64,000 nucleotides of DNA from an uncultured Candidatus Entotheonella sp. (lineage in GTDB: Bacteria; Tectomicrobia; Entotheonellia; Entotheonellales; Entotheonellaceae), in NCBI GenBank assembly GCA_958295825.1, contig OY282375.1, positions 1,349,489 through 1,413,488 on the forward strand, read 5' to 3'. Below, one piece after another: positions 26,895 to 60,733 of the stretch. Under the pieces are notes generated by a model, which did no database searches, had not been told where the DNA came from, and saw nothing but the letters and a program-made list of their open reading frames with translations. Each line of letters starts with the position of its first letter. Positions within the stretch are counted from its first letter, which is position 1. The position numbers and the translations under genes were made by a program.

Positions 26895-27968
26895 ATGGAT
26901 GGTTTGCCCATGGACGCCACCCGGTCCGACGATCTAGCGGCACTGCAACTGCTTCCACTCCGATTTACCCTGCGCGCCCGGACGCCTTTGCAACTGCCCC
27001 GCTACAAAGGCTCTACGTTGCGCGGCGGCTTTGGAACCGCCTTCAAACAAGCCGTCTGCGTGATCGAACATCGGGACTGTGGCCGCTGCCTGCTGCGTAC
27101 AACCTGCGCCTATCCCTACGTATTCGATACGCCAGTACCCCGCGATGCCGCGCGGATGCGCAAGTACACGGCGGCGCCGCACCCTTTTGTCCTGCTCCCA
27201 CCTCTGGAGCAGAAAGAGCGCTATGAGCCGGGGGAATGCCTGCACGTCGGCTGGACACTGGTCGGCAAGGGCGCACATTACCTGCCGTACTTTATCTACG
27301 CGTTTGAGCGTTTGGGCGCGCAACAGGGCTTGGGCAAGGGGCGGGGGCGTTTCGTCCTGGAAAAGGTGAGCTGGCTTCCCCCGAATGCGGGGCCAGTGGT
27401 GATTTATCGGGGTGAGGAGCAGACCTTGCAGCATAGGTTCCGATTGCTTGACGTCCGCGACCTCACCACGCCGTCCGACTCGGAGGCGAGAAACCGGCTG
27501 ACGTTACGGTTTCTTACCCCCACTCGTTTGGTGTATGGCGGTTCGCTCACGGACACGCCAGCGTTTCACGTCATCCTGCGCACGCTGCTGCGGCGCTTGT
27601 CGAGTCTGGCCTATTTCCACTGCGGCGCAGTTCTACAGTTGGATTTTCGTCGTCTGATCGACCTGGCAAAAGACGTGACGTTAGTAACCCGGCGGTTGCA
27701 CTGGTACGATTGGGAACGGTATTCGGCGCGGCAGCAGGTTCGTATGCAAATGGGCGGTTTCGTGGGGCGCGTCACGTACGCTGGCGATCTGGCGCCCTTT
27801 CTTCCGTTTCTGCGCCTTGGCGCCATGGTGCACGTTGGCAAAGGCGTCACGTTTGGTCTGGGTAAATACGAAATCGTAGCGGAAGACCGTCAAGAAGACA
27901 GGCATGTCGACAACCGCCCTGGGCATTGCGCAGTTGTCTCCAGAAGTCCCACAAGGGAGGGACCATGA
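26895..27968 (+). CDS. cas6: CRISPR pre-crRNA endoribonuclease Cas6
   Basis: 357 residues from the ATG at 26895 (GGCGGGAGA upstream). RAMP protein with an N-terminal ferredoxin-like fold (KGSTLRGGFGTAFKQAVC), a zinc-ribbon-like CGRCLLRTTCAYPYVF, and the C-terminal Cas6 domain ending HVGKGVTFGLGKYEIV, the glycine-rich loop of the family. Cuts the repeat in the precursor transcript to release crRNAs with an 8-base 5' tag, which here would be ATTGAAAC. Its stop codon overlaps the cas10 start (ATGA), so it begins the cas operon. Confidence 0.88.
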   Translation: MDGLPMDATRSDDLAALQLLPLRFTLRARTPLQLPRYKGSTLRGGFGTAFKQAVCVIEHRDCGRCLLRTTCAYPYVFDTPVPRDAARMRKYTAAPHPFVLLPPLEQKERYEPGECLHVGWTLVGKGAHYLPYFIYAFERLGAQQGLGKGRGRFVLEKVSWLPPNAGPVVIYRGEEQTLQHRFRLLDVRDLTTPSDSEARNRLTLRFLTPTRLVYGGSLTDTPAFHVILRTLLRRLSSLAYFHCGAVLQLDFRRLIDLAKDVTLVTRRLHWYDWERYSARQQVRMQMGGFVGRVTYAGDLAPFLPFLRLGAMVHVGKGVTFGLGKYEIVAEDRQEDRHVDNRPGHCAVVSRSPTREGP

Positions 27969-30514
27969 TGGCACAATTCGGCCTCGATCCGCGAGTTTTG
28001 GGCGCGCTGCTCCATGACATCGGCAAGTTCAGGGAACGCACCTCCGAACCGTTGCCTTCATGGGCCGAGCACTATCCGCGCGCGGCCAAGTACAGCCACG
28101 AGCCGTTCAGCGCCCTGTTCGTGGAAGACTATTTGGGCCGTTGGTCTGCAGACCGCCACGCCCTCAGTCGGGTGGTGCTCAAACATCACAATCCATCCTT
28201 GCCCGACGAGCAGGTGGTCAGTCTGGCGGACCGGCTCTCGGCCAATGAGCGCGCTGAAGCAGAAGACGACATACCAGGCGCCCGCGGCCGGGCCGACAGC
28301 ACCTTGCACGCGGCGCTGTCTCGCGTGACGCTCGATAACCGCGCGTGCGACCAGCCGATGTATTACCGGCTCGGCGAGTTGTCCTTCAGCCGCGACGCCT
28401 TGTTCCCGACGCCGGAGGCTTCAGGTTCGGTGGCGGCCTATCGGACGCTGTGGCAGAAATTTTCGGATGACGTGACGCGCAGCCCCACGGACGACCTCAC
28501 GACCCTGCTGGCCTTGCTGCGCAAGTACACCTGGGCCATCCCCTCCGATACGCGCCACAACATCGTGCCGGACGTTTCCCTGTACCACCATTTGAAGACC
28601 ACCGCGGCCATCGCGGCCTGTCTGGTGCGGGAAGGTCTGACGGAGCAGGAGGTGCAAACGCTGCTGACGGCCCTGGGTCGGCTGTACAAAAAAAGCCTCA
28701 AATTAACCTCCGCAGAGGAGGACATGACACAACGCCCTCTCTGCGCTCTCGTCAAAGGCGACGTTTCCGGCACGCAGGAGTTTCTCTACCTGCTGACCAG
28801 TAGCGGCGCGACCCGAGGCTTACGAGGTCGGTCGTTTTATTTGCAGCTGCTTACCGAGGTGATAGCGGATTGGGTGTTGCGGCGCCTGCAACTGCCGCCC
28901 ACCAATACGCTATTTGTCGGCGGCGGCCATTTTTACGTGCTGCTTCCTTACCATGAGACCGTGCGACACCTCGACGCGCTGCGGCAAGACATCGCCGGCA
29001 AACTCTGGCGGCTGCATGAGGGCGATTTATCGCTCACGATGGACTTCACCCCTGTGAACGCCCTGGATTTCCTGGAGCAGGAAGCCGGCGGGAACGCCTT
29101 TGCCAGCAAGTGGGGAGCGGTATCGCAACAGGTGAACCAACGTAAACAGCACAAGTGGCGTGATTTGGGCGACGCCGACATGATGCGTCACCTGTTTACC
29201 GCGCAGCAGCGCGGCGCCACTGCTGAGGAGATGTGTCAGGTCTGCCACAACGAGTGGCGCGCCGGGGTGGACGTTCTGGATGATGACGTCCGCAAATGCC
29301 GGCGCTGTGCCGGGTTCGAAGAGTTGGGGCGCCAGCTGCGCGCTCCCACCCATCTGGTGCTCTTCACCGTTCCGGAATCTCAGCCGCCTGAAAATGCCGC
29401 CTGGGATCACGCCCTGCGCGCTTTTGGTGTCGAGGCGCGGCTCATCCACGCAGATAACGATGACGTACCGCCCAAACCCGCCGGCGCCACCGCGGCGACG
29501 GTTTACACGCTGGACAGCACGAATTTTCTTACCGACTCGGTGCAACAGTGCTTCCGCTGGGACGACCTGCCGGTCAGCTACGACTTTCGCCCCTTGCCGG
29601 ACGCTACGCCTGAGAAGTTTGATGAGAAAGGCGATAGAGCCATCGCCGATTTCAGCGATCTGGCCAAGGCTTCAGAGGGGGTGAAATGGCTGGGGGTGTT
29701 GCGGATGGACGTGGATAGCCTGGGCGAGGTGTTTCGAGCCGGCCTGGGTGGATGGGCAACGCTCTCGAGTGTCAGCACCTTGAGTGAATCGCTACGTCTC
29801 TTTTTCGAAGCCTGGGTCCCTCAGGTGTGCCGGCGCTACCATCGCCTGGAACAGCAGGGAAAGGGCAGCGTATACCTGATCTATGCCGGCGGCGATGACC
29901 TCTTCGTGGTCGGGGCCTGGAGCATCTTGCCGGAGCTGGCGCAAGACATCCAGAGGGATTTCCGGGACTTCGTGGGCGGGACGCACGTCACCCTGTCGGG
30001 CGGCATCGCCATCGAGCATCAGAAATACCCCCTGTACCAGCTCGCCAATGATGCCAAAGGCGCTCTTGACGATCAGGCCAAAACCTTGCCGCGCAAGAAT
30101 GCCTTGAGCTTTTTGCGAACCCCTGTGGAATGGGAACGCTTCACCGACGTGGCCACGTGGCAGAGAGACCTTCTCTACATGCTCAATCCCACCACAGAAG
30201 GGGTTCCCGCATTGCCGCGCGGCTTTCTGTCGCGTCTGACGGAAATCCACGCGCTGTATGATGAGAACGCCAAACGGGAGAAGAAACTGCAGCGGCAGGA
30301 AAAACGCGGCATGGCGGACATAGAGGAGATGATTCGTTATGACAAATGGCGCTGGCGCTTGACCTATCAACTCAGCCGCTTCGCCGAGCGCTACACAGCG
30401 CATCAGGCGAAAATCAATGATCTGCAGCGGGCCATTCTGCGTGAGCCGGACGGGCTTATCGACGTTTTGCACATGCTGGCAAGATGGACCGCTCTATTGA
30501 CGAGGGAGGAATAG
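27965..30514 (+). CDS. cas10: Type III-A CRISPR Cas10/Csm1
   Basis: 849 residues from the ATG at 27965 (or 27968). Domain order: N-terminal HD nuclease (LLHDIGKFRE, cleaves ssDNA), first palm with GTQEFLYLLTSSGATRG, zinc ribbon (CQVCHNEW, CRRCAGFEEL), second palm with YAGGDDLFVVG (GGDD at residues 642-645, cyclic oligoadenylate synthesis), and a helical end. Both active sites look intact, so target RNA binding should trigger second-messenger production. That is consistent with the CARF-domain gene at 38480. GGGAGGG precedes the start. Confidence 0.95.
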   Translation: MMAQFGLDPRVLGALLHDIGKFRERTSEPLPSWAEHYPRAAKYSHEPFSALFVEDYLGRWSADRHALSRVVLKHHNPSLPDEQVVSLADRLSANERAEAEDDIPGARGRADSTLHAALSRVTLDNRACDQPMYYRLGELSFSRDALFPTPEASGSVAAYRTLWQKFSDDVTRSPTDDLTTLLALLRKYTWAIPSDTRHNIVPDVSLYHHLKTTAAIAACLVREGLTEQEVQTLLTALGRLYKKSLKLTSAEEDMTQRPLCALVKGDVSGTQEFLYLLTSSGATRGLRGRSFYLQLLTEVIADWVLRRLQLPPTNTLFVGGGHFYVLLPYHETVRHLDALRQDIAGKLWRLHEGDLSLTMDFTPVNALDFLEQEAGGNAFASKWGAVSQQVNQRKQHKWRDLGDADMMRHLFTAQQRGATAEEMCQVCHNEWRAGVDVLDDDVRKCRRCAGFEELGRQLRAPTHLVLFTVPESQPPENAAWDHALRAFGVEARLIHADNDDVPPKPAGATAATVYTLDSTNFLTDSVQQCFRWDDLPVSYDFRPLPDATPEKFDEKGDRAIADFSDLAKASEGVKWLGVLRMDVDSLGEVFRAGLGGWATLSSVSTLSESLRLFFEAWVPQVCRRYHRLEQQGKGSVYLIYAGGDDLFVVGAWSILPELAQDIQRDFRDFVGGTHVTLSGGIAIEHQKYPLYQLANDAKGALDDQAKTLPRKNALSFLRTPVEWERFTDVATWQRDLLYMLNPTTEGVPALPRGFLSRLTEIHALYDENAKREKKLQRQEKRGMADIEEMIRYDKWRWRLTYQLSRFAERYTAHQAKINDLQRAILREPDGLIDVLHMLARWTALLTREE

Positions 30515-30517
30515 ACC

Positions 30518-30925
30518 ATGGCAGCGAAGGGACCTCCGAGCCGGCAACGTGGGCAGGGGCACGATTTACAAAACCAGGGGCGCCGGGCGATTCGGGAGGG
30601 CGGCAAAAGCCTCGTGGAGATAGCTGAAAAATTAGGTCCTGAATTGAACAGAGGACGGCTCACGACCAGCCAGATACGGAACGTTTTTGGCGCGGTCAAG
30701 ACGATGGAAATGGGCCAGTTCAATTCCCATCAACTCGTTCTCCTCAAGCCCAAACTCGCCTATGCGGCAGCGCGAGCGAGTGGTCAAGGCGCGCGACAGT
30801 TAAAGGAGGTCTTGTCAGGGGCTATCGATGAGGTCGGAAGTGATGAAACGAAATTCGCGCGTTTCGTCGACTTTTTCGAGGCCATCCTCGCTTATCATAA
30901 AGCCGATGGTGGCAGGAACTCTTAG
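30518..30925 (+). CDS. csm2: Type III-A small subunit Csm2
   Basis: 135-residue helical protein, starting 3 bases after the cas10 stop. NRGRLTTSQIRNVFGAVKTME and the LVLLKPKLAYAAARA helix are Csm2 hallmarks. Forms the inner filament of the Csm complex between the backbone and Cas10. A basic N-terminus of about 40 residues is longer than in compact homologues. Confidence 0.9.
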   Translation: MAAKGPPSRQRGQGHDLQNQGRRAIREGGKSLVEIAEKLGPELNRGRLTTSQIRNVFGAVKTMEMGQFNSHQLVLLKPKLAYAAARASGQGARQLKEVLSGAIDEVGSDETKFARFVDFFEAILAYHKADGGRNS

Positions 30926-30943: not shown

Positions 30944-31768
30944 ATGGCACACCTTGCATTGACAGGCAAAGTCCTCATCACAGGCGACATCGAAACCGTT
31001 ACCGGGCTTCATATCGGCGGTGCTTCCGCCGGCCTGGACATTGGCGGCATCGATAACCCGATGATTCGCCATCCAGTAAGCCGAGAGCCTTATATTCCAG
31101 GCTCATCCCTGCGCGGCAAGATGCGCGCCCTGCTGGACAGACACCTTGGTAAAGAAGCCAATACGCCCATTCGACGCCAACCACCAGAAGTCCGGGTTCA
31201 TGTCTGCCAGGACGAAGCGGAGTACGCCGCTTGCGCGGTTTGTCAGGTGTTTGGCGTCACGCCGGGCGATCAACGTCGAGAGTGGACAAGCCTCAAACCG
31301 GGGCGGCTCATCGTGCGCGACGTACAGCTGGCGAACGAGTCTGCCGAAAAACTCCGTCTTGCCAAAACCGACATGCCATTTGCCGAAGTCAAGTGGGAGG
31401 CGGTCATTGACCGCATTACCTCCGCCGCGGTGCCGCGTCAGAATGAACGGGTGCCGGCGGGCGCGGTATTCGCGCCCTTCGAGTTCGTCTACAGCCTCTA
31501 TGATCTGGACGGCGCCGGCTGTCAGGCGGATATCGATTGGCTGCGCAGCGTTTTCCAGGCCATGGAGATGCTTGAAGACGACTATCTGGGGGGTTATGGC
31601 TCTCGCGGGGCTGGCAAAATCAGGTTCTGTAACCTCGTCGTGACGTTCAAGCCCAAGGCTTATTACGAGGGCAAGGCAGATCTCGTCCCCTTGGCGGGGC
31701 GCGTCAGCATGGCAGAGTTGCGTCCAGATGAATATGCCGACCGAATCAAGGCGTCATTAGAAGGCTGA
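30944..31768 (+). CDS. csm3: Type III-A backbone subunit and target-RNA nuclease Csm3
   Basis: 274 residues. RAMP fold with THETA-like TGLHIGGASAGLDIGGIDNP. D37 matches the catalytic aspartate of Csm3 that cuts target RNA every six bases. YIPGSSLRGKMRALLDR is the conserved glycine-rich segment that binds crRNA. The insertion HVCQDEAEYAACAVCQVFG has three cysteines and may bind zinc. Spaced 18 bases from csm2. Confidence 0.93.
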   Translation: MAHLALTGKVLITGDIETVTGLHIGGASAGLDIGGIDNPMIRHPVSREPYIPGSSLRGKMRALLDRHLGKEANTPIRRQPPEVRVHVCQDEAEYAACAVCQVFGVTPGDQRREWTSLKPGRLIVRDVQLANESAEKLRLAKTDMPFAEVKWEAVIDRITSAAVPRQNERVPAGAVFAPFEFVYSLYDLDGAGCQADIDWLRSVFQAMEMLEDDYLGGYGSRGAGKIRFCNLVVTFKPKAYYEGKADLVPLAGRVSMAELRPDEYADRIKASLEG

Positions 31769-31773
31769 CGGGC

Positions 31774-32886
31774 ATGCCAACCTTTCCCACCTATCGCCTC
31801 GTCTTCCGTTCCCCGCTGCATATCGGCGAACGGGGAGTTGGCCTGGAAGCGGCGCAAATTCACGTCCCGGCGGATACGCTGTTCGGCGCTATCTGCTCGG
31901 TCTGGCGAGAAGTTTATGGCGTCGCCGGGCTTCTCAACGACGTGCTGGACCGGTTTGGCGAAGCCGAAGCGGGCAGCGAGCCGTTTTTTCTCACCTCGGC
32001 CTTTCCGTTTGCCGGCTCGGTGCGTTTCTTCCCCAAGCCGCTGGCCCGTCTGGCTAACGTGACGATTGCCCCGGATGACGAAAAGGCGTTCAAACGCATA
32101 CGATTCGTCTCCGAAGCCGTCTTTGCGGCGCTCGTTGAGGGCCAGGCGTTGACCTTTGAAAACGCTAAATGCAACTGCGTCAACAAATGCAACTGCGTCA
32201 ACAGATGCAACTGCGTCAACAGATGCAACTGCGTCAACGGCCAAACGGTCTGGGTCACAAAAGCCGAGCGTCAGACGCTCTCGAAATGGACGTCTGACGA
32301 AACGGGCGACATCGTCCTGTGGCAAAAAGACATCGTTCCGCGAGTGACCCTGGACCGGATGACTTCCGCCTCGGAACTGTGGCACTTGGGCGAAACACGG
32401 TTTGCAGCCGATGCGGGTCTGTGGTTCGCCGTGGCCTTCAACCCCGAGCACGGCGACGCCTTGCGGCGCCGTTTCACGACCTGTCTGCGCGTCTTGGGCG
32501 ACACCGGCCTGGGCGGTGAACGCGGCGCCGGACGCGGGCTCTTCGACGTCGATGCAGCACAGGACCAATCCCTGCCCGAACTCGACGCGGCCGGGCGCTT
32601 TGTTACGCTCTCGCCCTGCTGCCCGCGCGGGGAAGACCAATTGGCTCGATTAACCGCTGACGATGCGGCGTACGAGATCATTCCCCGGCGTGGTTGGGTC
32701 ACCTCGCCCGAGGCCGGCAACCTGCGCCGCAAAACGGTGTGGATGTTTGCCGAGGGTTCCGTGCTGACAGGCGAACCCGCGGCACGACCGCGACCGGGCC
32801 GACTCGTTAACGTCAAACCCGATGCCTGTCCGCACGACGTGTGGCGCTATGGTTTTGCTTTTCCCGTGGGGATGACGACGCCATGA
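31774..32886 (+). CDS. csm4: Type III-A subunit Csm4 with a cysteine-rich repeat insertion
   Basis: 370 residues, about 60 longer than usual Csm4. The N-terminal RAMP segment (FRSPLHIGERGVGLEAAQIHVPADTLFGAICSVW) and the GDTGLGGERGAGRGLFDVD loop identify the subunit that caps the 5' tag of crRNA next to Cas10. Residues 132-155 are four 6-residue units, K/R-C-N-C-V-N, encoded by an 18-bp tandem repeat at 32167-32238. This insertion adds eight cysteines, is not part of the family fold and keeps the frame. Ends with ATGA overlap into csm5. Confidence 0.9.
   Translation: MPTFPTYRLVFRSPLHIGERGVGLEAAQIHVPADTLFGAICSVWREVYGVAGLLNDVLDRFGEAEAGSEPFFLTSAFPFAGSVRFFPKPLARLANVTIAPDDEKAFKRIRFVSEAVFAALVEGQALTFENAKCNCVNKCNCVNRCNCVNRCNCVNGQTVWVTKAERQTLSKWTSDETGDIVLWQKDIVPRVTLDRMTSASELWHLGETRFAADAGLWFAVAFNPEHGDALRRRFTTCLRVLGDTGLGGERGAGRGLFDVDAAQDQSLPELDAAGRFVTLSPCCPRGEDQLARLTADDAAYEIIPRRGWVTSPEAGNLRRKTVWMFAEGSVLTGEPAARPRPGRLVNVKPDACPHDVWRYGFAFPVGMTTP
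32167..32238 (+). repeat. Four-copy 18-bp tandem repeat inside csm4
   Basis: Each unit is (A/G)-containing AAATGC or AGATGC followed by AACTGCGTCAAC. Copies 1-2 differ from copies 3-4 only at one base (AAA versus AGA). The unit length is a multiple of three, so expansion or loss keeps csm4 in frame and changes the number of C-N-C-V-N units. Confidence 0.95.
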
Positions 32887-34010
32887 CAACCACCCGTTAC
32901 ACCCTGACCTGCCTGAGTCCCGTGCACGTGGGTTCCGGCAATCAATTGAGCAAATTCGACGGCGTCTATCGTGACCGGCAATGGTTCGCCATCGACCTCG
33001 ACGCCGTTCTCGCCCATCCGGGTGTCGATGCAAACGCGCTGGCGCGCGACATGAGCGCCCGGCATTTTTCCTGGGACGTCTGGTTGGAGCAACACGGCCT
33101 CGCCGCTTCTGACGTGGCGCTTTACGCCCTGCCTTGTCCACAAGACCCCGAAGCCGTGGCCATTCGTGAAGCCATGAAGAATCACTTGCGCCGGCCCTAT
33201 CTTCCCGGCACTTCCGTAAAGGGCGCCCTGCGTACCGCGGTGCTGACGCAGCTGCTGACCGACGACCACAAAGCTGGAACCCAGGGGTGGCGTAACATCC
33301 AGCAAAAGCTGGGTGCGTTGGAAGGAAACCCGCGATGGCTGGGACAACCCATCGAACGCGCCGTGCTCGGCCGCAACCCCAATCATGACCTGATGCGCGC
33401 CGTGCAGGTGGTTGACAGCCATCCGGCGGCAAGCGAACGCCTCGCGGTCGGCCTGGTCTGGACGTATACCCTGCGCGGCGAACGGCTGGTGGAAAAACGC
33501 GAGGCGAACGGGGACTACAAGAGCTTTGTCGAGTGGCTCCTTCCCGGCGCCTCGCTGCGCCTGGCCATTCGCCTCGACGAGTATCTTTTCGGCGACGTGG
33601 CCAGGAGGGAGCTACGTTTCAGGAACGCCCAAGAACAGGCTGTGCGTGGCCTGGCGCGCACGTGTAATGCCCAGGCGCAGACCCTCATGGCAACCGAAAA
33701 GGCATTTTTCTCGACCTATGGTCCAGCTGTTCTGCACGAGTTTTACCAAGAGCTCGAAGTAACGTTGCGGGATTTACCCGAAGGCGCCTTCCTGCTGAAC
33801 GTCGGCTGGGGCGGCGGTTGGGAAGCAAAAACCTTGGGGGATCTGCTTCGCACGGCGCTGGGACAGGAGGGCTTCCAGAAGTTGCGGCAGCAACATCGCC
33901 TGGGGCGTAATCCCGCGGCGCCTTTTCCCAAAACCCGGCGCCTTGCATACGAAGGAGGGGCGGCGCAATGGCCGATGGGGTGGGTGAAACTAACGCCCGG
34001 CGAGGGGTAA
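32883..34010 (+). CDS. csm5: Type III-A subunit Csm5
   Basis: 375 residues from the ATG at 32883 that overlaps the csm4 stop codon. RAMP features: LTCLSPVHVGSGNQLSKFD at the N-terminus, RRPYLPGTSVKGALRTAVLTQLL, and ARDMSARHFSWDVWL between. Csm5 sits at the 3' end of the crRNA and helps its maturation. Completes the set Cas10-Csm2-3-4-5. A 52-base gap precedes cas1. Confidence 0.9.
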   Translation: MTTTRYTLTCLSPVHVGSGNQLSKFDGVYRDRQWFAIDLDAVLAHPGVDANALARDMSARHFSWDVWLEQHGLAASDVALYALPCPQDPEAVAIREAMKNHLRRPYLPGTSVKGALRTAVLTQLLTDDHKAGTQGWRNIQQKLGALEGNPRWLGQPIERAVLGRNPNHDLMRAVQVVDSHPAASERLAVGLVWTYTLRGERLVEKREANGDYKSFVEWLLPGASLRLAIRLDEYLFGDVARRELRFRNAQEQAVRGLARTCNAQAQTLMATEKAFFSTYGPAVLHEFYQELEVTLRDLPEGAFLLNVGWGGGWEAKTLGDLLRTALGQEGFQKLRQQHRLGRNPAAPFPKTRRLAYEGGAAQWPMGWVKLTPGEG

Positions 34011-34062: not shown

Positions 34063-35064
34063 ATGGCGACACTTTACCTGACGGAACAGGGCGCCGTGCT
34101 GCGTAAAACCGGCGAGCGACTCATCGTCGAGAAAGATAAACAGGAACTCCTGGAGATCGAGTGCTTCAAGGTGGACACGGTCTTTGCCTTTGGCAACGTG
34201 CACGTGACCACCCCGGCGCTGACCACGTTGCTCCATCATGGGATCGAGTTGGCCTTTTTAAGCCAGAACGGTCGGCTCAAGGGGCAACTGACGCCGCCGA
34301 AGGCGAAAAACGTCCTGTTACGCGTGGCGCAGTACCAGAAGCACCAGGATACGCCGTTTGCCCTTGACCTGGCGCGCCGGTTCGTTCACGGCAAGGTGCG
34401 CAACGCGGCCTCTCTGCTGACGCGGCAGCACCGGAATTATCCCGAGCGCGGTTTTGGCGCCTGCCGTCGGGAACTCGGTCGTCTCTTGCGCCGGGTCGAG
34501 GAAGCCCCGACGCTCGATTCGCTGCGCGGGCTCGAAGGCAGCGCAGCGCGCACCTATTTCCAGGGCTTTGCCCTGGCATGCCGGACCGGACTCGGTTTTC
34601 CCGGGCGCCGTCGCCGGCCGCCTACCGACCCCATCAACGCCCTGCTGTCGTTCGGCTATACGTTGATCAACGCCGAGTTGAACAGCCTCCTCGACGCGAT
34701 GGGCTACGATCCCTACATCGGCTTCTTCCACCAGCTCGATTATGGCCGCCCGTCACTGGCTCTGGACCTGCTCGAGGAATTTCGAGTTCCCGCGGTGGAC
34801 CGCCTGGTATTGAATCTCGTCAACCGGCGGACGTTGAAACAGGAAGATTTCGTGCCGCACGAAGAGAGCGGTGGCCTGCGCCTGAGCCGTGAGGCCCTGA
34901 AGAAATTCTTTCGCAGCTATGAGGCGCACCTGAACCGGGACTTTACGGACCCTGTTTCGGGTCAAACGACCACCCTGCGAAAAAGTTTTCGGCGTCAGGC
35001 AGAGCGCCTGGCAGCCCATTTGACGCGGGGCGACGAGTATGTTCCGTTGCTCGTCACCTGGTAA
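34063..35064 (+). CDS. cas1: CRISPR integrase Cas1
   Basis: 333 residues. The N-terminal beta domain reads MATLYLTEQGAVLRKTGERL. The C-terminal helical domain holds the catalytic residues: E158 in GLEGSAARTYFQG, H223 in YDPYIGFFHQLDYG and an acidic residue in LDLLEEF (235-239). Inserts new spacers together with Cas2. Not fused to a reverse transcriptase or Cas6. Located in the operon directly before cas2 and the array, so the system should be able to acquire spacers. Confidence 0.95.
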   Translation: MATLYLTEQGAVLRKTGERLIVEKDKQELLEIECFKVDTVFAFGNVHVTTPALTTLLHHGIELAFLSQNGRLKGQLTPPKAKNVLLRVAQYQKHQDTPFALDLARRFVHGKVRNAASLLTRQHRNYPERGFGACRRELGRLLRRVEEAPTLDSLRGLEGSAARTYFQGFALACRTGLGFPGRRRRPPTDPINALLSFGYTLINAELNSLLDAMGYDPYIGFFHQLDYGRPSLALDLLEEFRVPAVDRLVLNLVNRRTLKQEDFVPHEESGGLRLSREALKKFFRSYEAHLNRDFTDPVSGQTTTLRKSFRRQAERLAAHLTRGDEYVPLLVTW

Positions 35065-35078
35065 CAGGAGGGGAAAGC

Positions 35079-35357
35079 ATGTTTTACGTCGTCGCCTATG
35101 ACATTTGTGATGATCGACGTCGAAACCGGGTAGCCAGGATTCTCGAGGATTTCGGCGACCGGGCGCAGAACAGCGTATTTGAGATGGAACTGGCTCGCTC
35201 TGAGCAGATCGACACCCTGCATCAACGTCTGAAAGACGCGATTGAACCATCCGAGGACGACGTGCGGTCTTACTTTCTCTGCCGGGACTGTCGCAAAAAA
35301 GCGACCGCTCTGGGGCAGGGCCGCCTGTACAGCGATGACGACGTGTACGTCGTCTGA
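35079..35357 (+). CDS. cas2: CRISPR adaptation protein Cas2
   Basis: 92 residues, the family's normal size. Ferredoxin-like start FYVVAYDICDDRRRNRVARIL with the conserved aspartate, then QNSVFEMELARSEQ and the C-terminal YSDDDVYVV. Structural dimer that holds the spacer for Cas1. AGGAGGGG ribosome site 14 bases after the cas1 stop. Last gene before the CRISPR leader. Confidence 0.95.
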   Translation: MFYVVAYDICDDRRRNRVARILEDFGDRAQNSVFEMELARSEQIDTLHQRLKDAIEPSEDDVRSYFLCRDCRKKATALGQGRLYSDDDVYVV

Positions 35358-35555: not shown

Positions 35556-36891
35556 GTCTGAAGTACTGCCCTGATGAAGAAGGGATTGAAACTGATAAAT
35601 ATAACACGGGTTCACTCGACTACTAGCTATGTCTGAAGTACTGCCCTGATGAAGAAGGGATTGAAACCATATTTGCATGCTCATTCCCCTTCTACCATAT
35701 CAGCATTGTCTGAAGTACTGCCCTGATGAAGAAGGGATTGAAACCTTTTGACGATGGCATCAAAAAGCTCTTGATTTTCCATGTCTGAAGTACTGCCCTG
35801 ATGAAGAAGGGATTGAAACGCGAGGAATTCCCGCCAGGCGTCCTCGGGTATGGATCGGGGTCTGAAGTACTGCCCTGATGAAGAAGGGATTGAAACCGTG
35901 CCAGCGTAGGGCTGTAAAGCACGCTCGGATTGGTTGGCTGTCTGAAGTACTGCCCTGATGAAGAAGGGATTGAAACTGGCTGTCTTCGGCAGCCGATTTA
36001 ATTGTTTGCAATACCGTCTGAAGTACTGCCCTGATGAAGAAGGGATTGAAACGACCTGGCGTCGGGGCAGACGCCGACGAGCGTTTACTCGCGTCTGAAG
36101 TACTGCCCTGATGAAGAAGGGATTGAAACTATTCGAGTCTGTCATCATCCTGGACAGACCTATAGTCTGAAGTACTGCCCTGATGAAGAAGGGATTGAAA
36201 CTCATATATTGCTTCGATTCTTTTAAGCTCATTAGTATCTCTTGTCTGAAGTACTGCCCTGATGAAGAAGGGATTGAAACTTCAGCGGCGTTAGCTGTTC
36301 GCCGCCAAAAAAAGAACCGAAAGGTCTGAAGTACTGCCCTGATGAAGAAGGGATTGAAACGAGGATAGGCAAGAGAGCGGAGCGAAACATTTGGCTCTGT
36401 CTGAAGTACTGCCCTGATGAAGAAGGGATTGAAACTTCTTATCAGGCTGGCCTGGGAGCCTCCCTCCTCCACAGAGTCTGAAGTACTGCCCTGATGAAGA
36501 AGGGATTGAAACCGGCCTTCAACGCCTCGCCCAAAGCCGCCGCGCCCTTGTCTGAAGTACTGCCCTGATGAAGAAGGGATTGAAACTTTTATACGTATCT
36601 CCAGCAGGAGTCGTCGGGGATTTCGGTCTGAAGTACTGCCCTGATGAAGAAGGGATTGAAACTTCTTATCAACACCTACGTCGTTCGGTTCCCCGAGCCA
36701 TATCCGTCTGAAGTACTGCCCTGATGAAGAAGGGATTGAAACGACGACCACAATCCACTTCGTGCCGTAACGTTTCACTGTCTGAAGTACTGCCCTGATG
36801 AAGAAGGGATTGAAACTTGATGGTGTAAACCATGGGTTGGTCGTACCTCTTGTAGTCTGAAGTACTGCCCTGATGAAGAAGGGATTGAAAC
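35556..36891 (+). CRISPR. CRISPR array, 18 repeats and 17 spacers
   Basis: Eighteen copies of one 37-base repeat, beginning GTCTGAAGTACTGCCC and ending GGGATTGAAAC, with spacers of 35-43 bases. By eye all 18 copies are identical. The 3' ATTGAAAC is the typical 8-base tag of type III crRNAs. Repeats start at 35556, 35631, 35708, 35783, 35860, 35940, 36016, 36093, 36165, 36244, 36324, 36399, 36476, 36550, 36626, 36706, 36780 and 36855. Orientation is set by the leader, the cas operon and the degenerate distal repeat. The array is interrupted after repeat 18 by a gene and resumes at 38342. Confidence 0.98.
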
Positions 36892-36910
36892 GGTCATCGC
36901 AATTCCTCCC

Positions 36911-36940
36911 TTGGCAATGTATTAAGAAAGGACCTACATA
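36911..36940 (+). promoter_or_regulatory. Possible promoter of the array-embedded gene
   Basis: TTGGCA at 36911-36916 and TACATA at 36935-36940, 18 bases apart, followed by a AGGAG ribosome site and a GTG at 36975. The -10 match is poor. If wrong, the gene depends on transcription from the CRISPR leader. Confidence 0.25.
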
Positions 36941-36974
36941 CTTGACAATCCTTCTCCCAGGAGACAACCGACCC

Positions 36975-38285
36975 GTGTACAGGCAGCAACTCATCGCCCA
37001 AGCTGCCGAGGCCGGCGACCTCGACCCGCGCAAGATCGAAGGCATGACCGAAGCCGCCGCCGCCCCCCAAGTCCTGCGATACGCCCAGACCGGCGCCCTG
37101 CAGTTCTGGGTCGCCGGCAACCTCATGAACGAATGGGTCCGCCAGCTCGACTACCAAGAGCTCCTGAAGAACGCGCTCGCGGCCTCCGTCGCCGGGCACG
37201 CCGCCAGCGGCTGGCTGCAGAACCTCGACTTCAACGCGCTGCCCAAAGACCTCCTGAGCTACTACCAGCGGGCCGGCGTCACCTACCGGGACTTGGACGC
37301 CGCAAGGGCCATATGGGAAACAATTCCCGCCCCCGTGAGGATGGGCGGCGAAGACGCCCTGCGGAAGTTCCACGCCGAACGCGACTGGAGCCACATCGTT
37401 CCGCGGAGCTTGGGCGGCGGCAACAGCGCCAGCGAAGGCATTTTCGAGAACGCCTCGCTCAACCGCGTCCGCGGCAACGCCACAATGACCGGGGCCGAGC
37501 TCGACGCGGCGCGCCAAGCCCTCGGCATGGAAGCCCTGCGCCACGCCGTCACGCAGGCGGCGCAAGTCGCCGTCGTCAGCGGCCTGACGGCCGCCGTCGT
37601 CGAAGGCGTCTTCGCCACCATGGAAGAAGGGCTGCTCTACTTCGACGGCGAAATCGACAAGCGGGAATTCTACTCGCGCGTGCTGAAGCGGATGGGCACT
37701 TCCGTTGCCCACGCCGTCGTCATTTCCGGGCTCATCGTCGGCCTCGTAACGCTCTGTCCCGTCCTCATCCCGGTCCTCGAGCTCCTGGCGCTGCCCCTGG
37801 CGATCGCCAGCTTCACGCTGCTGGGAATCAGGTTCTACCACCTGAACAGAGAATGGTGGCAACGCGTCAGCCTCGACCCCAGCCTACCGGCCGAGCTGCT
37901 GCCCGACTGGTTCCGGAACTGGACCTGGAAACCCGTCAAGAGCCTCCCCGGACAAGCCCTCGAAGCCGGGAACAAGGCGCGGGAAGGCATGCTGAACGCT
38001 TGGAACGCGAAGGACAAAGCCTGGGAAGACATCCAGAACGCGAAAGACAATGCCTGGGAAGGCGTCCAAAACGCTTGGAGACGAGTCTCCGGCGCTGCGA
38101 AAGACGCCTCCCGCGCTACGAAAGACGCCTCCGAATGGGCCGGCGAGTGGTTCGGCGGAAGGATCTGGGAAGCGCAGGATGCCGCCGAAAACCGGAAACT
38201 GACGCTAGAATCGCTGCGAAACTCGATCGGCGGCTTCCTTTTCAGATCCGGAGCCAAGCCCGAAACGCCGCTGCTTTCCGAATGA
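36975..38285 (+). CDS. HNH-like, membrane-spanning protein encoded inside the CRISPR array
   Basis: 436 residues from a GTG at 36975, which has AGGAG 11 bases upstream; the frame is open back to an ATG inside repeat 18 (36873). Residues 1-130 are helical and unrecognised. At about 137-167 lies DWSHIVPRSLGGGNSASEG, then a SLNRVRGNATMT segment, resembling an HNH nuclease core (His140, Asn150 and the later Asn-Arg). Residues 245-288 are strongly hydrophobic (HAVVISGLIVGLVTLC and on), giving one or two membrane helices. The last 130 residues are charged, amphipathic and repetitive (KAWEDIQNAKDNAWEG). No CARF or SAVED domain is seen. Flanked on both sides by identical repeats and followed by a CARF gene, so a type III effector role is plausible but unproven. 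Confidence 0.7.
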   Translation: MYRQQLIAQAAEAGDLDPRKIEGMTEAAAAPQVLRYAQTGALQFWVAGNLMNEWVRQLDYQELLKNALAASVAGHAASGWLQNLDFNALPKDLLSYYQRAGVTYRDLDAARAIWETIPAPVRMGGEDALRKFHAERDWSHIVPRSLGGGNSASEGIFENASLNRVRGNATMTGAELDAARQALGMEALRHAVTQAAQVAVVSGLTAAVVEGVFATMEEGLLYFDGEIDKREFYSRVLKRMGTSVAHAVVISGLIVGLVTLCPVLIPVLELLALPLAIASFTLLGIRFYHLNREWWQRVSLDPSLPAELLPDWFRNWTWKPVKSLPGQALEAGNKAREGMLNAWNAKDKAWEDIQNAKDNAWEGVQNAWRRVSGAAKDASRATKDASEWAGEWFGGRIWEAQDAAENRKLTLESLRNSIGGFLFRSGAKPETPLLSE

Positions 38286-38341
38286 CGGGAAAGCAGCGCC
38301 TCCAACTGGCAGAATAACCCTCATGGACCTCAAAGAATACC

Positions 38342-38455
38342 GTCTGAAGTACTGCCCTGATGAAGAAGGGATTGAAACTCATTGTCATAAATGACAACAT
38401 ATATCCCTTGCTCACTGCGTCTGAAGTACTGTCCTGATGAAGAAGGGATTGAAAC
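38342..38455 (+). CRISPR. Distal CRISPR segment: two repeats and one 40-base spacer
   Basis: Repeat 38342-38378 is identical to the main array. Spacer 38379-38418. The last repeat 38419-38455 has one change (GTCC for GCCC at its 14th base), as expected for the oldest, trailer-end copy. Same strand and repeat as the array at 35556-36891, so this is the rest of one array split by the 1.45-kb insert. The CARF gene starts 24 bases downstream. Confidence 0.97.
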
Positions 38456-38479: not shown

Positions 38480-39643
38480 ATGCCCAAATCGCGACCTCAC
38501 ACGCTTCTCTGCACCGTCGGGACCAGTCTGTTTTATCCCAATCTGTCCGGTCTCACCCGCGAATCGCAATCCGACCCGGCCCTTGCCGCCTTGGCCCAGG
38601 CTTATGCCGCAAAGAACTGGCGGGAGGTAGCAGACCGACTGCATCACGTGACGCCCACCGAGCGGCTTTGCGGCGCGGAGATCAACTCGGTAACGGAGTT
38701 GCTCACGGATGGATTGATCGAGAAGGCCCGCCTCCATCTGCTGTTTTCCGACACGGATGACGGGCGGGCAATTGCCCAGGTCTTGCAGGCTTATTTCGAG
38801 ACCGATGGCTGGCAGGTGCAGACGCACTGCGTGGCGGATTTGCGCGACAACGACCCCCAGGCATTCCGTACCCGGGGGCTGCGCAATTTGGCAAAAGTCC
38901 TGGGTGAACGGATGTATGAGGCGGGTGGGAAGGCTGACTTCTGTGCGATTAATGCGACCGGCGGCTATAAGGCTCAGATCGCCATTGCCGTTCTCATGGG
39001 TCAGGCGCTCGGCATTCCGGTGTATTACAAGCACGAGCGCTTTGACGCCATCATCCCCTTTCCCCCCATGCCGGTATCCCTGGATTCCTCCCTCTGGGAG
39101 GGCGCCAGCGGCATGTTCATGGTGCTCGGCAAGGTCGACGCCTGCGAGCCGTACGAACGGTTTCGTGAGGAGTGGGATGAACGCTTTGAGACGCTGATCG
39201 ATCGGGTGCAGATCGATGGCGAGGATTATCTGGAGCTTTCGACGACCGGCCAGATTTTTCACGAGACCTTCCGGGCTCGTTTCCGAAAGATCAAGGATAC
39301 CCGCCTGCCACGTCCGGCAACACAGCGCGAGAAGCAGCAGTCCAATCTGGCCAAACACGGCTATGGACAAGCCGAAGCGCCCATTTCGCACTTTATGCAG
39401 AAGCTTACCGACGAACGGCCTTATGTCCGCTTCTGTCACACAACGTATTGGAATCCAGACCTGCCTGAATCAACCCGGTTTCGGCTGTCGAGTGACGGCG
39501 TCCAAGGCATCTACTCGAACGGTTCCTGGTGTGTGAAGTTTGCGGTGCTCACGACAACCGATGATCGGAACGAATTACCAGGTGTCGTGGCCGACCTCAA
39601 TGACTGGCTCCATGACTGGCTACTGAGTACGCCCCGTATTTAA
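38480..39643 (+). CDS. CARF-domain protein (APE2256-like), probable cyclic-oligoadenylate-activated effector
   Basis: 387 residues. N-terminal CARF domain to about residue 205: strand with TVGTSLFYPN (12-21), LHLLFSDTDDG, and the ligand loop INATGGYKAQIAIAVLMGQ (157-175), then VYYKHERFDAIIPFPP. This is the pattern of the APE2256-type CARF family. The C-terminal 170 residues are different from HEPN of Csm6/Csx1 (no R-x4-6-H motif) and end in TRFRLSSDGVQGIYSNGSWC with a following strand. A RelE-like ribonuclease, as in Cami1, is one possibility but not certain. GAGAGG precedes the ATG. Its 5' region is the last CRISPR repeat. Confidence 0.8.
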   Translation: MPKSRPHTLLCTVGTSLFYPNLSGLTRESQSDPALAALAQAYAAKNWREVADRLHHVTPTERLCGAEINSVTELLTDGLIEKARLHLLFSDTDDGRAIAQVLQAYFETDGWQVQTHCVADLRDNDPQAFRTRGLRNLAKVLGERMYEAGGKADFCAINATGGYKAQIAIAVLMGQALGIPVYYKHERFDAIIPFPPMPVSLDSSLWEGASGMFMVLGKVDACEPYERFREEWDERFETLIDRVQIDGEDYLELSTTGQIFHETFRARFRKIKDTRLPRPATQREKQQSNLAKHGYGQAEAPISHFMQKLTDERPYVRFCHTTYWNPDLPESTRFRLSSDGVQGIYSNGSWCVKFAVLTTTDDRNELPGVVADLNDWLHDWLLSTPRI

Positions 39644-59695: not shown

Positions 59696-60733
59696 ATGGA
59701 AGGAATCTCGATTCTAGTGGGACTGGGCATTATTGGCGCGATTCTCTTCTGGAAGTTGAGCGCCTCCGAATCGGCTGAGGAAAGGATGGCCAGGCTGGAT
59801 CGGCTGGATCGCGGCTACGCCGGTGGCGAGGAGCAAGAACTGCAGGCAGAGAGGGGGCTGGAGGAGCGTAGAAAAAGGGAGAAACAGGAGCAAGAACGCA
59901 CCACCAGGAAGTCCATGCTGGCCAGGCACTTCGAGCAAGAACTGCAGAAGGCCCGCGAGGAGCAAGAACTGAAGGCCCACGAAAAGATGAAGCGAATGGA
60001 AGCAGAGAGGAGGCTAGCAACAGAACAGCGAATGGAAGCAGAGAGGAGGTTGGTAAAGGAAGCAGAGAGGAGGCTGGCAGAGGAGCTAGCAACAGAACAG
60101 CGAATGGAAGCAGAGAGGAGGTTGGCAAAGGAAGCAGAGAGGAGGCTGGCAGAGGAGCTAGCAACAGAACACCGGAGAAAGGAAGAACTGAGAGAGCAAT
60201 TTCCCCGCATCATTGAGACGGCTTTCTTGGTCAAGAGTTGCCCACGTTGCCATGAGAACCAGATGGGCTTGGTCTCTATCAGCCCGAACGCAAAGTCCAT
60301 CCAGTACAGGTGCGAAATCTGCGGAAAGGTGCAACGTGCCGCTGCAGGCAGTCCGGAGGCTCTGAAGATCAAGGAACTTGTGGGAGAATACGACCTCCAG
60401 GTTGAGAGGCTCGCCGCGCATGCTAGGCTCCAGGAAAGCCTGCAAAGGCCAAGGCGGGGTGCGCAGCGAGTCCGAGTCAAAGCTGAACTGCCCCTTTATT
60501 TCGTAGTACCAGAGGCCATGATGCCTTACGAGAAGACCACAAGGGAGACGATCACCAAGGCGATGCGAACGGAAGTTTATCGGCGGGACAACGGCCAGTG
60601 CGTGGAATGTGGGAGCAAGGAGCAGCTGCATTTTGACCACATCCTGCCGGTGGCCAAAGGTGGGACTACGGCCGTTTGCAACCTCCAGTTGCTTTGCCAG
60701 TCGTGCAACTTGGCGAAGGGCGCGAGGATTTAG
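59696..60733 (+). CDS. Membrane-anchored coiled-coil protein with zinc ribbon and HNH endonuclease domain
   Basis: 345 residues from the ATG at 59696 (GAGAGGAG upstream). One N-terminal membrane helix (ISILVGLGIIGAILFWKL), then about 150 residues of charged coiled coil with a duplicated segment (see 60014-60171). A zinc ribbon follows (CPRCHENQ, CEICGK), then a C-terminal HNH domain (NGQCVECGSKEQLHFDHILPV, then LLCQSCNLAKGARI). The catalytic histidines and zinc cysteines are all present, so a nuclease is likely. A membrane-tethered HNH nuclease has the look of a defence protein, but none is known by name here. Confidence 0.75.
   Translation: MEGISILVGLGIIGAILFWKLSASESAEERMARLDRLDRGYAGGEEQELQAERGLEERRKREKQEQERTTRKSMLARHFEQELQKAREEQELKAHEKMKRMEAERRLATEQRMEAERRLVKEAERRLAEELATEQRMEAERRLAKEAERRLAEELATEHRRKEELREQFPRIIETAFLVKSCPRCHENQMGLVSISPNAKSIQYRCEICGKVQRAAAGSPEALKIKELVGEYDLQVERLAAHARLQESLQRPRRGAQRVRVKAELPLYFVVPEAMMPYEKTTRETITKAMRTEVYRRDNGQCVECGSKEQLHFDHILPVAKGGTTAVCNLQLLCQSCNLAKGARI
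60014..60171 (+). repeat. 72-bp tandem duplication in the coiled-coil region
   Basis: Units 60014-60085 and 60086-60157 differ at one base, and a third begins at 60158 but diverges after 14 bases. Each unit adds 24 residues of coiled coil (AERRL-type heptads) and keeps the frame, so the length of the stalk may vary. Confidence 0.9.

What the first reader, a model, noticed from the sequence alone, without database searches (positions are those of the whole stretch)
32167..32238. Cysteine-rich 18-bp tandem repeat within csm4
Four units of K/R-C-N-C-V-N add eight cysteines to the subunit that lies beside Cas10 and the crRNA tag. The units are nearly identical in DNA, so the expansion is recent and could change copy number without breaking the frame. 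Possible consequences: a metal-binding loop, a redox switch on the Csm complex, or simply slippage that is tolerated in a surface loop.
Basis: partly seen in the sequence, partly recalled or inferred. Interest (0 to 1): 0.75.

Follow-up and report, generated by a model that had tools for sequence, protein, structure and literature searches.

The report
Recent in-frame repeat in csm4 loop
A short stretch of a CRISPR immunity gene (csm4) has recently been copied four times in a row without breaking the reading frame, most likely a tolerated copying slip that adds a floppy cysteine-rich bulge to one surface loop, in a genome where such in-frame repeats are common.

Summary
Window 32167-32238 is four 18-bp units (98% match), in frame in an intact csm4 (31774-32886) of an apparently complete type III-A locus; it encodes KCNCVN-KCNCVN-RCNCVN-RCNCVN. 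Codon shuffles of csm4 never approach its repeat score. It is not a mobile microsatellite: the unit occurs nowhere else in the genome, and the doubled Cys motif is absent from 385 other genomes and from IMG/VR.

Six related Csm4s have the same loop with a single Cys (C-[I/L]-N-G-like). The last unit is therefore the ancestral hairpin and the rest is a recent insertion of about 20 residues. AlphaFold2 keeps that hairpin at high confidence and gives the inserted units the lowest confidence of the protein. The insertion lies in a length-variable part of Csm4 before the thumb; a distant Csm4 has its own insertion there. The genome carries many in-frame tandem arrays, including an unrelated near-perfect 18-bp one.

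Best reading: replication slippage of a local sequence, tolerated in a flexible surface loop. Seven new cysteines make metal or redox behaviour possible, but nothing here favours it. Known kind of event, unusual amino-acid content and location. Copy-number variation and raw reads could not be tested.

The parts
31774..32886 (+). csm4 (Cas5-family subunit of the type III-A Csm complex), 370 aa, intact
   Evidence: TIGR01903 E=5.6e-64 over 7-366 and Pfam Csm4_C PF17953; AlphaFold2 model matches solved Csm4 chains at Foldseek E down to 3.7e-22
32167..32238 (+). 18-bp tandem array, 4 units, encoding (K/R)CNCVN x4 (residues 132-155)
   Evidence: TRF period 18, 4.0 copies, 98% match; codon-shuffle control
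32161..32220 (+). part inserted relative to relatives (N-A plus three units; exact boundaries are arbitrary within a repeat); lowest-confidence stretch of the model
   Evidence: alignments; pLDDT below 50 for residues 136-140 and 142-149
32221..32253 (+). last unit and following codons: ancestral beta-hairpin motif, CNCVNGQTVW here (residues 150-160), shared with relatives
   Evidence: relatives KQNCINGGIAW, KKHCLNGGTVW, PKSCINGGVAW and others; modelled with pLDDT about 90 here and 93-97 in the single-unit relative L033
26880..27968 (+). cas6
   Evidence: PF10040 E=5.5e-22
27968..30514 (+). cas10/csm1 (exact start not determined; the listed ORF opens at 27926), with HD and GGDD motifs in the translation
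   Evidence: TIGR02578 E=1.8e-172; motifs read in the translation
30518..30925 (+). csm2
   Evidence: PF03750 E=3.2e-28
30944..31768 (+). csm3
   Evidence: TIGR02582 E=8.4e-64
32883..34010 (+). csm5, overlapping the end of csm4 by 4 bases
   Evidence: TIGR01899 E=2.5e-32
34063..35064 (+). cas1
   Evidence: PF01867 E=1.4e-94

Best explanation
The array is a recent tandem expansion of an 18-bp stretch that was already part of csm4 and codes for a small surface beta-hairpin with one cysteine. Replication slippage or unequal recombination copied the unit in frame to four copies. The last copy still forms the original hairpin; the other three, with two further residues about 20 in all, bulge out as a flexible loop just before it. 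Because 18 bp is six codons and the site is a length-variable loop, the Csm complex probably still assembles, so the change is neutral or nearly so. Shown: the array, the frame, the single-unit state in relatives, the low model confidence, and comparable arrays elsewhere in the genome. Inferred: slippage as the mechanism, surface exposure, tolerance and near-neutrality.
For: Array and frame. Relatives have one Cys unit at the same place. The inserted units are the lowest-confidence stretch of the model while the last unit's hairpin stays at pLDDT about 90; the single-unit relative models the same hairpin at 93-97. The segment before the thumb ranges from 29 to 71 aa across the sampled Csm4s, and L038 has an independent insertion there. 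In 864 kb of this genome (40 spaced stretches of 20 kb plus the window) TRF lists 87 rows, 23 with at least 90% match, most with periods divisible by three, among them an unrelated 18-bp, 3.3-copy, 97% array inside another reading frame and two perfect 2-copy 18-bp arrays. The unit is unique to this place, so it arose locally. Neighbouring cas genes are intact.
Against: Cysteine is strongly under-represented in prokaryotic low-complexity segments and is argued to be poorly tolerated in clusters (PMC6821194), so a purely neutral 8-Cys stretch is somewhat surprising. In the sampled genome no other array codes for three or more Cys. No population data show that the copy number varies or that the expanded allele works.
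Confidence: 0.78

Rival explanations
1. The repeated CxC units form a metal-binding (Zn, Cu or Fe) or disulfide-forming loop that stabilises or redox-tunes the Csm complex, and the expansion was selected for that.
For: Eight Cys in 24 residues as regularly spaced CNC pairs; the highest Cys count in any 24 residues among 595 sampled reading frames of at least 300 codons was 6. Cas10 and Csm6 of the M. tuberculosis CRISPR system are reported as S-sulfenylated (PMC10101118), so thiol chemistry on such systems is not unthinkable.
Against: No Pfam or PDB sequence match for the peptide. The model gives it no confident structure (AlphaFold2 does not model metals, so this is weak). Absent from every relative examined. 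Units too alike for a long-selected element. Other recent in-frame arrays in the genome have few or no Cys.
Confidence: 0.1
2. The array is a contingency-type VNTR: copy number changes often and tunes the strength of the CRISPR response in subpopulations.
For: Near-identical in-frame units, which slippage could change by whole units without frameshift.
Against: Whole-codon units cannot switch the gene off; only one allele is known; no second isolate or reads were available.
Confidence: 0.07
3. Assembly artefact: the true gene has fewer or more units.
For: Tandem repeats are known to be mis-assembled (PMC6868369). Reads not available.
Against: 72 bp is shorter than ordinary read lengths; two unit types in the order A, A, G, G and no frame break; single-contig genome.
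Confidence: 0.05

Closest known systems
Csm4 (TIGR01903 / PF17953), Cas5-family subunit of type III-A complexes
   Same: Whole-length family match, C-terminal domain, fold of solved Csm4 chains, operon context cas6-cas10-csm2-csm3-csm4-csm5-cas1
   Different: About 20 extra residues with seven extra Cys in the loop before the thumb; no other Csm4 examined has this
Intragenic in-frame tandem repeats (minisatellites/VNTRs) of prokaryotic genes
   Same: Head-to-tail near-identical units, length a multiple of three, inside an intact reading frame, arisen from a local sequence
   Different: Cys-rich, whereas Cys is strongly under-represented in prokaryotic low-complexity segments (PMC6821194); lies in a CRISPR effector subunit; variation in copy number not shown
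Metallothionein-type CxC clusters
   Same: Repeated C-x-C pairs (resemblance from general knowledge)
   Different: No family match; embedded in a globular RNA-binding subunit; metal binding untested

Membership tests
Csm4 (type III-A Cas5) | Whole-protein match to curated Csm4 models above cut-off | tested here: met
   TIGR01903 216.4 bits, cut-off 55; PF17953 62.2 bits, cut-off 25.9
Csm4 (type III-A Cas5) | Fold of solved Csm4 | tested here: met
   Model pLDDT 85.6, pTM 0.88; the top 35 PDB matches are chains of Csm complexes or subcomplexes, target TM-scores 0.73-0.85
Csm4 (type III-A Cas5) | Located between csm3 and csm5 in a type III-A operon | tested here: met
In-frame intragenic tandem repeat | Tandem near-identical units, multiple of three, open frame | tested here: met
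In-frame intragenic tandem repeat | Arisen from a local single unit | tested here: met
   Six relatives hold a single unit with one Cys at the same place
In-frame intragenic tandem repeat (VNTR sense) | Copy number differs among strains or reads | not testable with these tools
   One assembly only; no reads; the one held genome of the same genus has no Csm4 match
Mobile or genome-wide microsatellite | Same unit at many loci | tested here: not met
   Only the four copies at this site match exactly in 4.29 Mb; near matches are no more frequent than for the reversed control pattern; 201-bp blastn gives one place
Metallothionein-like metal-binding loop | Match to a known Cys-cluster family | tested here: not met
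   No Pfam match up to E=10 and no PDB sequence match for the peptide
Metallothionein-like metal-binding loop | Binds metal | not testable with these tools
   Needs purified protein

The most novel reading that the evidence does not exclude
A freshly evolved cysteine-cluster loop on Csm4 binds metal or forms disulfides and makes the type III-A complex responsive to metal or redox state, with copy number as the adjustable parameter.
Probability: 0.06. Interest if true: 0.75.

Novelty: new member of a known kind. Interest (0 to 1): 0.27.

Why it matters
If neutral, it is a clean snapshot of how new loops arise in a CRISPR effector subunit: the single-unit state is preserved in relatives, the duplicated unit is recognisable, and the original structural element survives as the last copy. 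If the cysteines work, it would be a case of redox or metal control of a type III complex; no precedent turned up in the limited full-text searches made here.

Tried and rejected
Mobile microsatellite: rejected by the whole-genome pattern and blastn searches and by 386 genomes plus IMG/VR. Ancient conserved multi-Cys metal site: rejected, since relatives have one Cys or none at this place. Known Cys-rich domain: no Pfam or PDB match for the peptide. Second Csm4 in the genome: none. Csm4 relatives on plasmids: only two partial matches, 34-35% identical, not informative. Literature searches for redox or zinc in Csm/Cas10, for tandem repeats in cas genes and for bacterial CxC metallothionein repeats gave nothing direct. 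The whole genome was not available as a file, so the background of tandem repeats was measured on 40 spaced 20-kb stretches (800 kb). Twelve of the Csm4 loci were not recovered by my ORF filter and are missing from the length statistics.

Full report
Observation. Tandem Repeats Finder places an array at 32167-32238 with period 18, 4.0 copies and 98% match. It lies in frame in a 370-aa ORF, 31774-32886, which is Csm4 by TIGR01903 (E=5.6e-64) and Pfam Csm4_C. The units read AAATGCAACTGCGTCAAC twice and AGATGCAACTGCGTCAAC twice: one substitution type, Lys to Arg, and no synonymous difference, hence recent. 500 codon-order shuffles of csm4 give a best repeat score of 63 against 130, and the gene on either side of the array shows nothing above 24.

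Context. The gene sits in an apparently complete type III-A locus: cas6, cas10 (HD and GGDD motifs in the translation), csm2, csm3, csm4, csm5, cas1, a cas2-like ORF at 35079-35357 (assigned by size, sequence and position, no HMM run on it), a CRISPR array with 18 repeats plus two more further on, and a CARF-family protein at 38480-39643.

Not a mobile repeat. The 15-base core occurs exactly only at the four places of this array; with up to two mismatches the number of places (20 in all) is no more than for the reversed control pattern (25). A 201-bp query around the array has one match in the genome. The doubled motif TGY-AAY-TGY-GTN-AAY, with one mismatch allowed, is in none of 385 other genomes and, exactly, in no viral contig.

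Ancestral state. Relatives L031, L032 and L033 (66-67% identical overall) and L050, L035 and L037 have at this point FQKQNCINGGIAWV, FRRTSCITGETVWV, FEKKHCLNGGTVWV, FSPKSCINGGVAWV, LKTQHCLSEGTVWV and FDSHECLNKGGLWA, against FENA(KCNCVN)(KCNCVN)(RCNCVN)(RCNCVN)GQTVWV in the window. The second Cys of the last unit is thus the old one; the other seven are new. Against these relatives the window is about 20 residues longer, which three extra units plus two residues explain. The segment between the helix before this point and the thumb is 29-71 aa across about 30 Csm4s; the window and L038 are the longest, L038 by an unrelated insertion at the same place plus one further on.

Structure. The AlphaFold2 model of the window protein (12-sequence alignment, mean pLDDT 85.6) matches Csm4 chains of solved Csm complexes. 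Apart from residues 20-24, its least confident stretches are 136-140 and 142-149, the extra units; residues 151-160, holding the last unit and GQTVW, average about 90. In the single-unit relative L033 the corresponding C-L / V-W hairpin is modelled at 93-97. So the old hairpin is kept and the new residues bulge out before it. By sequence alignment the PRVTLDR motif that follows (189-195) aligns with ToCsm4 130-136, and R136 of ToCsm4 is a thumb residue that steadies the flipped -1 nucleotide (PMC10289348). The insertion therefore precedes the thumb. Solved Csm4s are shorter here, and I could not measure the distance from the loop to Cas10 or the crRNA tag; that paper notes that helices alpha3 and alpha4 of Csm4 contact Cas10 differently in different species, but I did not establish which elements flank this loop in that numbering.

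Background. In 864 kb of this genome (40 spaced stretches of 20 kb and the window) TRF at score 50 finds 87 rows, overlapping ones included, 23 of them with at least 90% match, and the commonest periods are 21, 18 and 33, all multiples of three. One is an unrelated 18-bp array, 3.3 copies, 97%, in a 760-aa ORF (GNLAWRGNLAWRWNLAWRWN), and two are perfect 18-bp doublets. In-frame duplication of this size is therefore ordinary in this genome. The Cys content is not: no other array codes for three or more Cys, and the highest Cys count in any 24 residues of 595 sampled frames of at least 300 codons (many of them probably not genes) is 6, against 8 here. Prokaryotic low-complexity segments are depleted in Cys (PMC6821194).

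Mechanism and verdict. Local slippage (or unequal recombination) of an in-gene unit, tolerated in a flexible surface loop, accounts for the observations with no added assumption (0.78). Metal or redox function is possible but has no positive evidence beyond the residues themselves; the peptide matches no Pfam family and no PDB sequence. Whole-codon units cannot switch the gene off, so a contingency-locus role is unlikely. Assembly error is unlikely for 72 bp but cannot be excluded without reads. Category: new member of a known kind, in an unusual place and with unusual composition.

Noticed in passing
window 36892-38341: The CRISPR array (18 repeats from 35556) is interrupted by about 1.45 kb holding an ORF (36873-38285, 470 aa) whose listed start lies inside the last repeat before the gap; two more repeats follow at 38342 and 38419. 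The protein has an HNH-like stretch (DWSHIVPRSLGG, by eye), possible membrane segments (by eye) and short internal repeats; no Pfam or PADLOC match and no match in 59 other genomes; a 42%-identical partial copy with two stops lies elsewhere in the genome.
   Followed up: partly
window 38480-39643: CARF-family protein best matching PADLOC 'CARF7--CARF_DUF2103' (E=1.1e-119), beside the type III-A locus: probably the cyclic-oligoadenylate-responsive partner.
   Followed up: no
L092 10989-11047: A second recent 18-bp in-frame array (3.3 copies, 97%) in a 760-aa ORF that looks like a transposase fragment joined to a sugar-dehydrogenase-like protein (by eye).
   Followed up: partly
L105 16152-20000 and L113 1-2250: Long arrays of 345-369-bp units with up to 99% match in very large open frames (6666 codons in L105 by the script), Calx-beta-like by eye.
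   Followed up: no
L090 16170-16433, L098 9789-10040, L104 14899-15043: DQRFD-type repeats with periods of 21-75 bp in several unrelated places of the genome, probably coiled coils.
   Followed up: no
window 60006-60171: 72-bp repeat, 2.3 copies, 97%, in a 443-codon frame of Glu/Arg-rich coiled-coil type.
   Followed up: no
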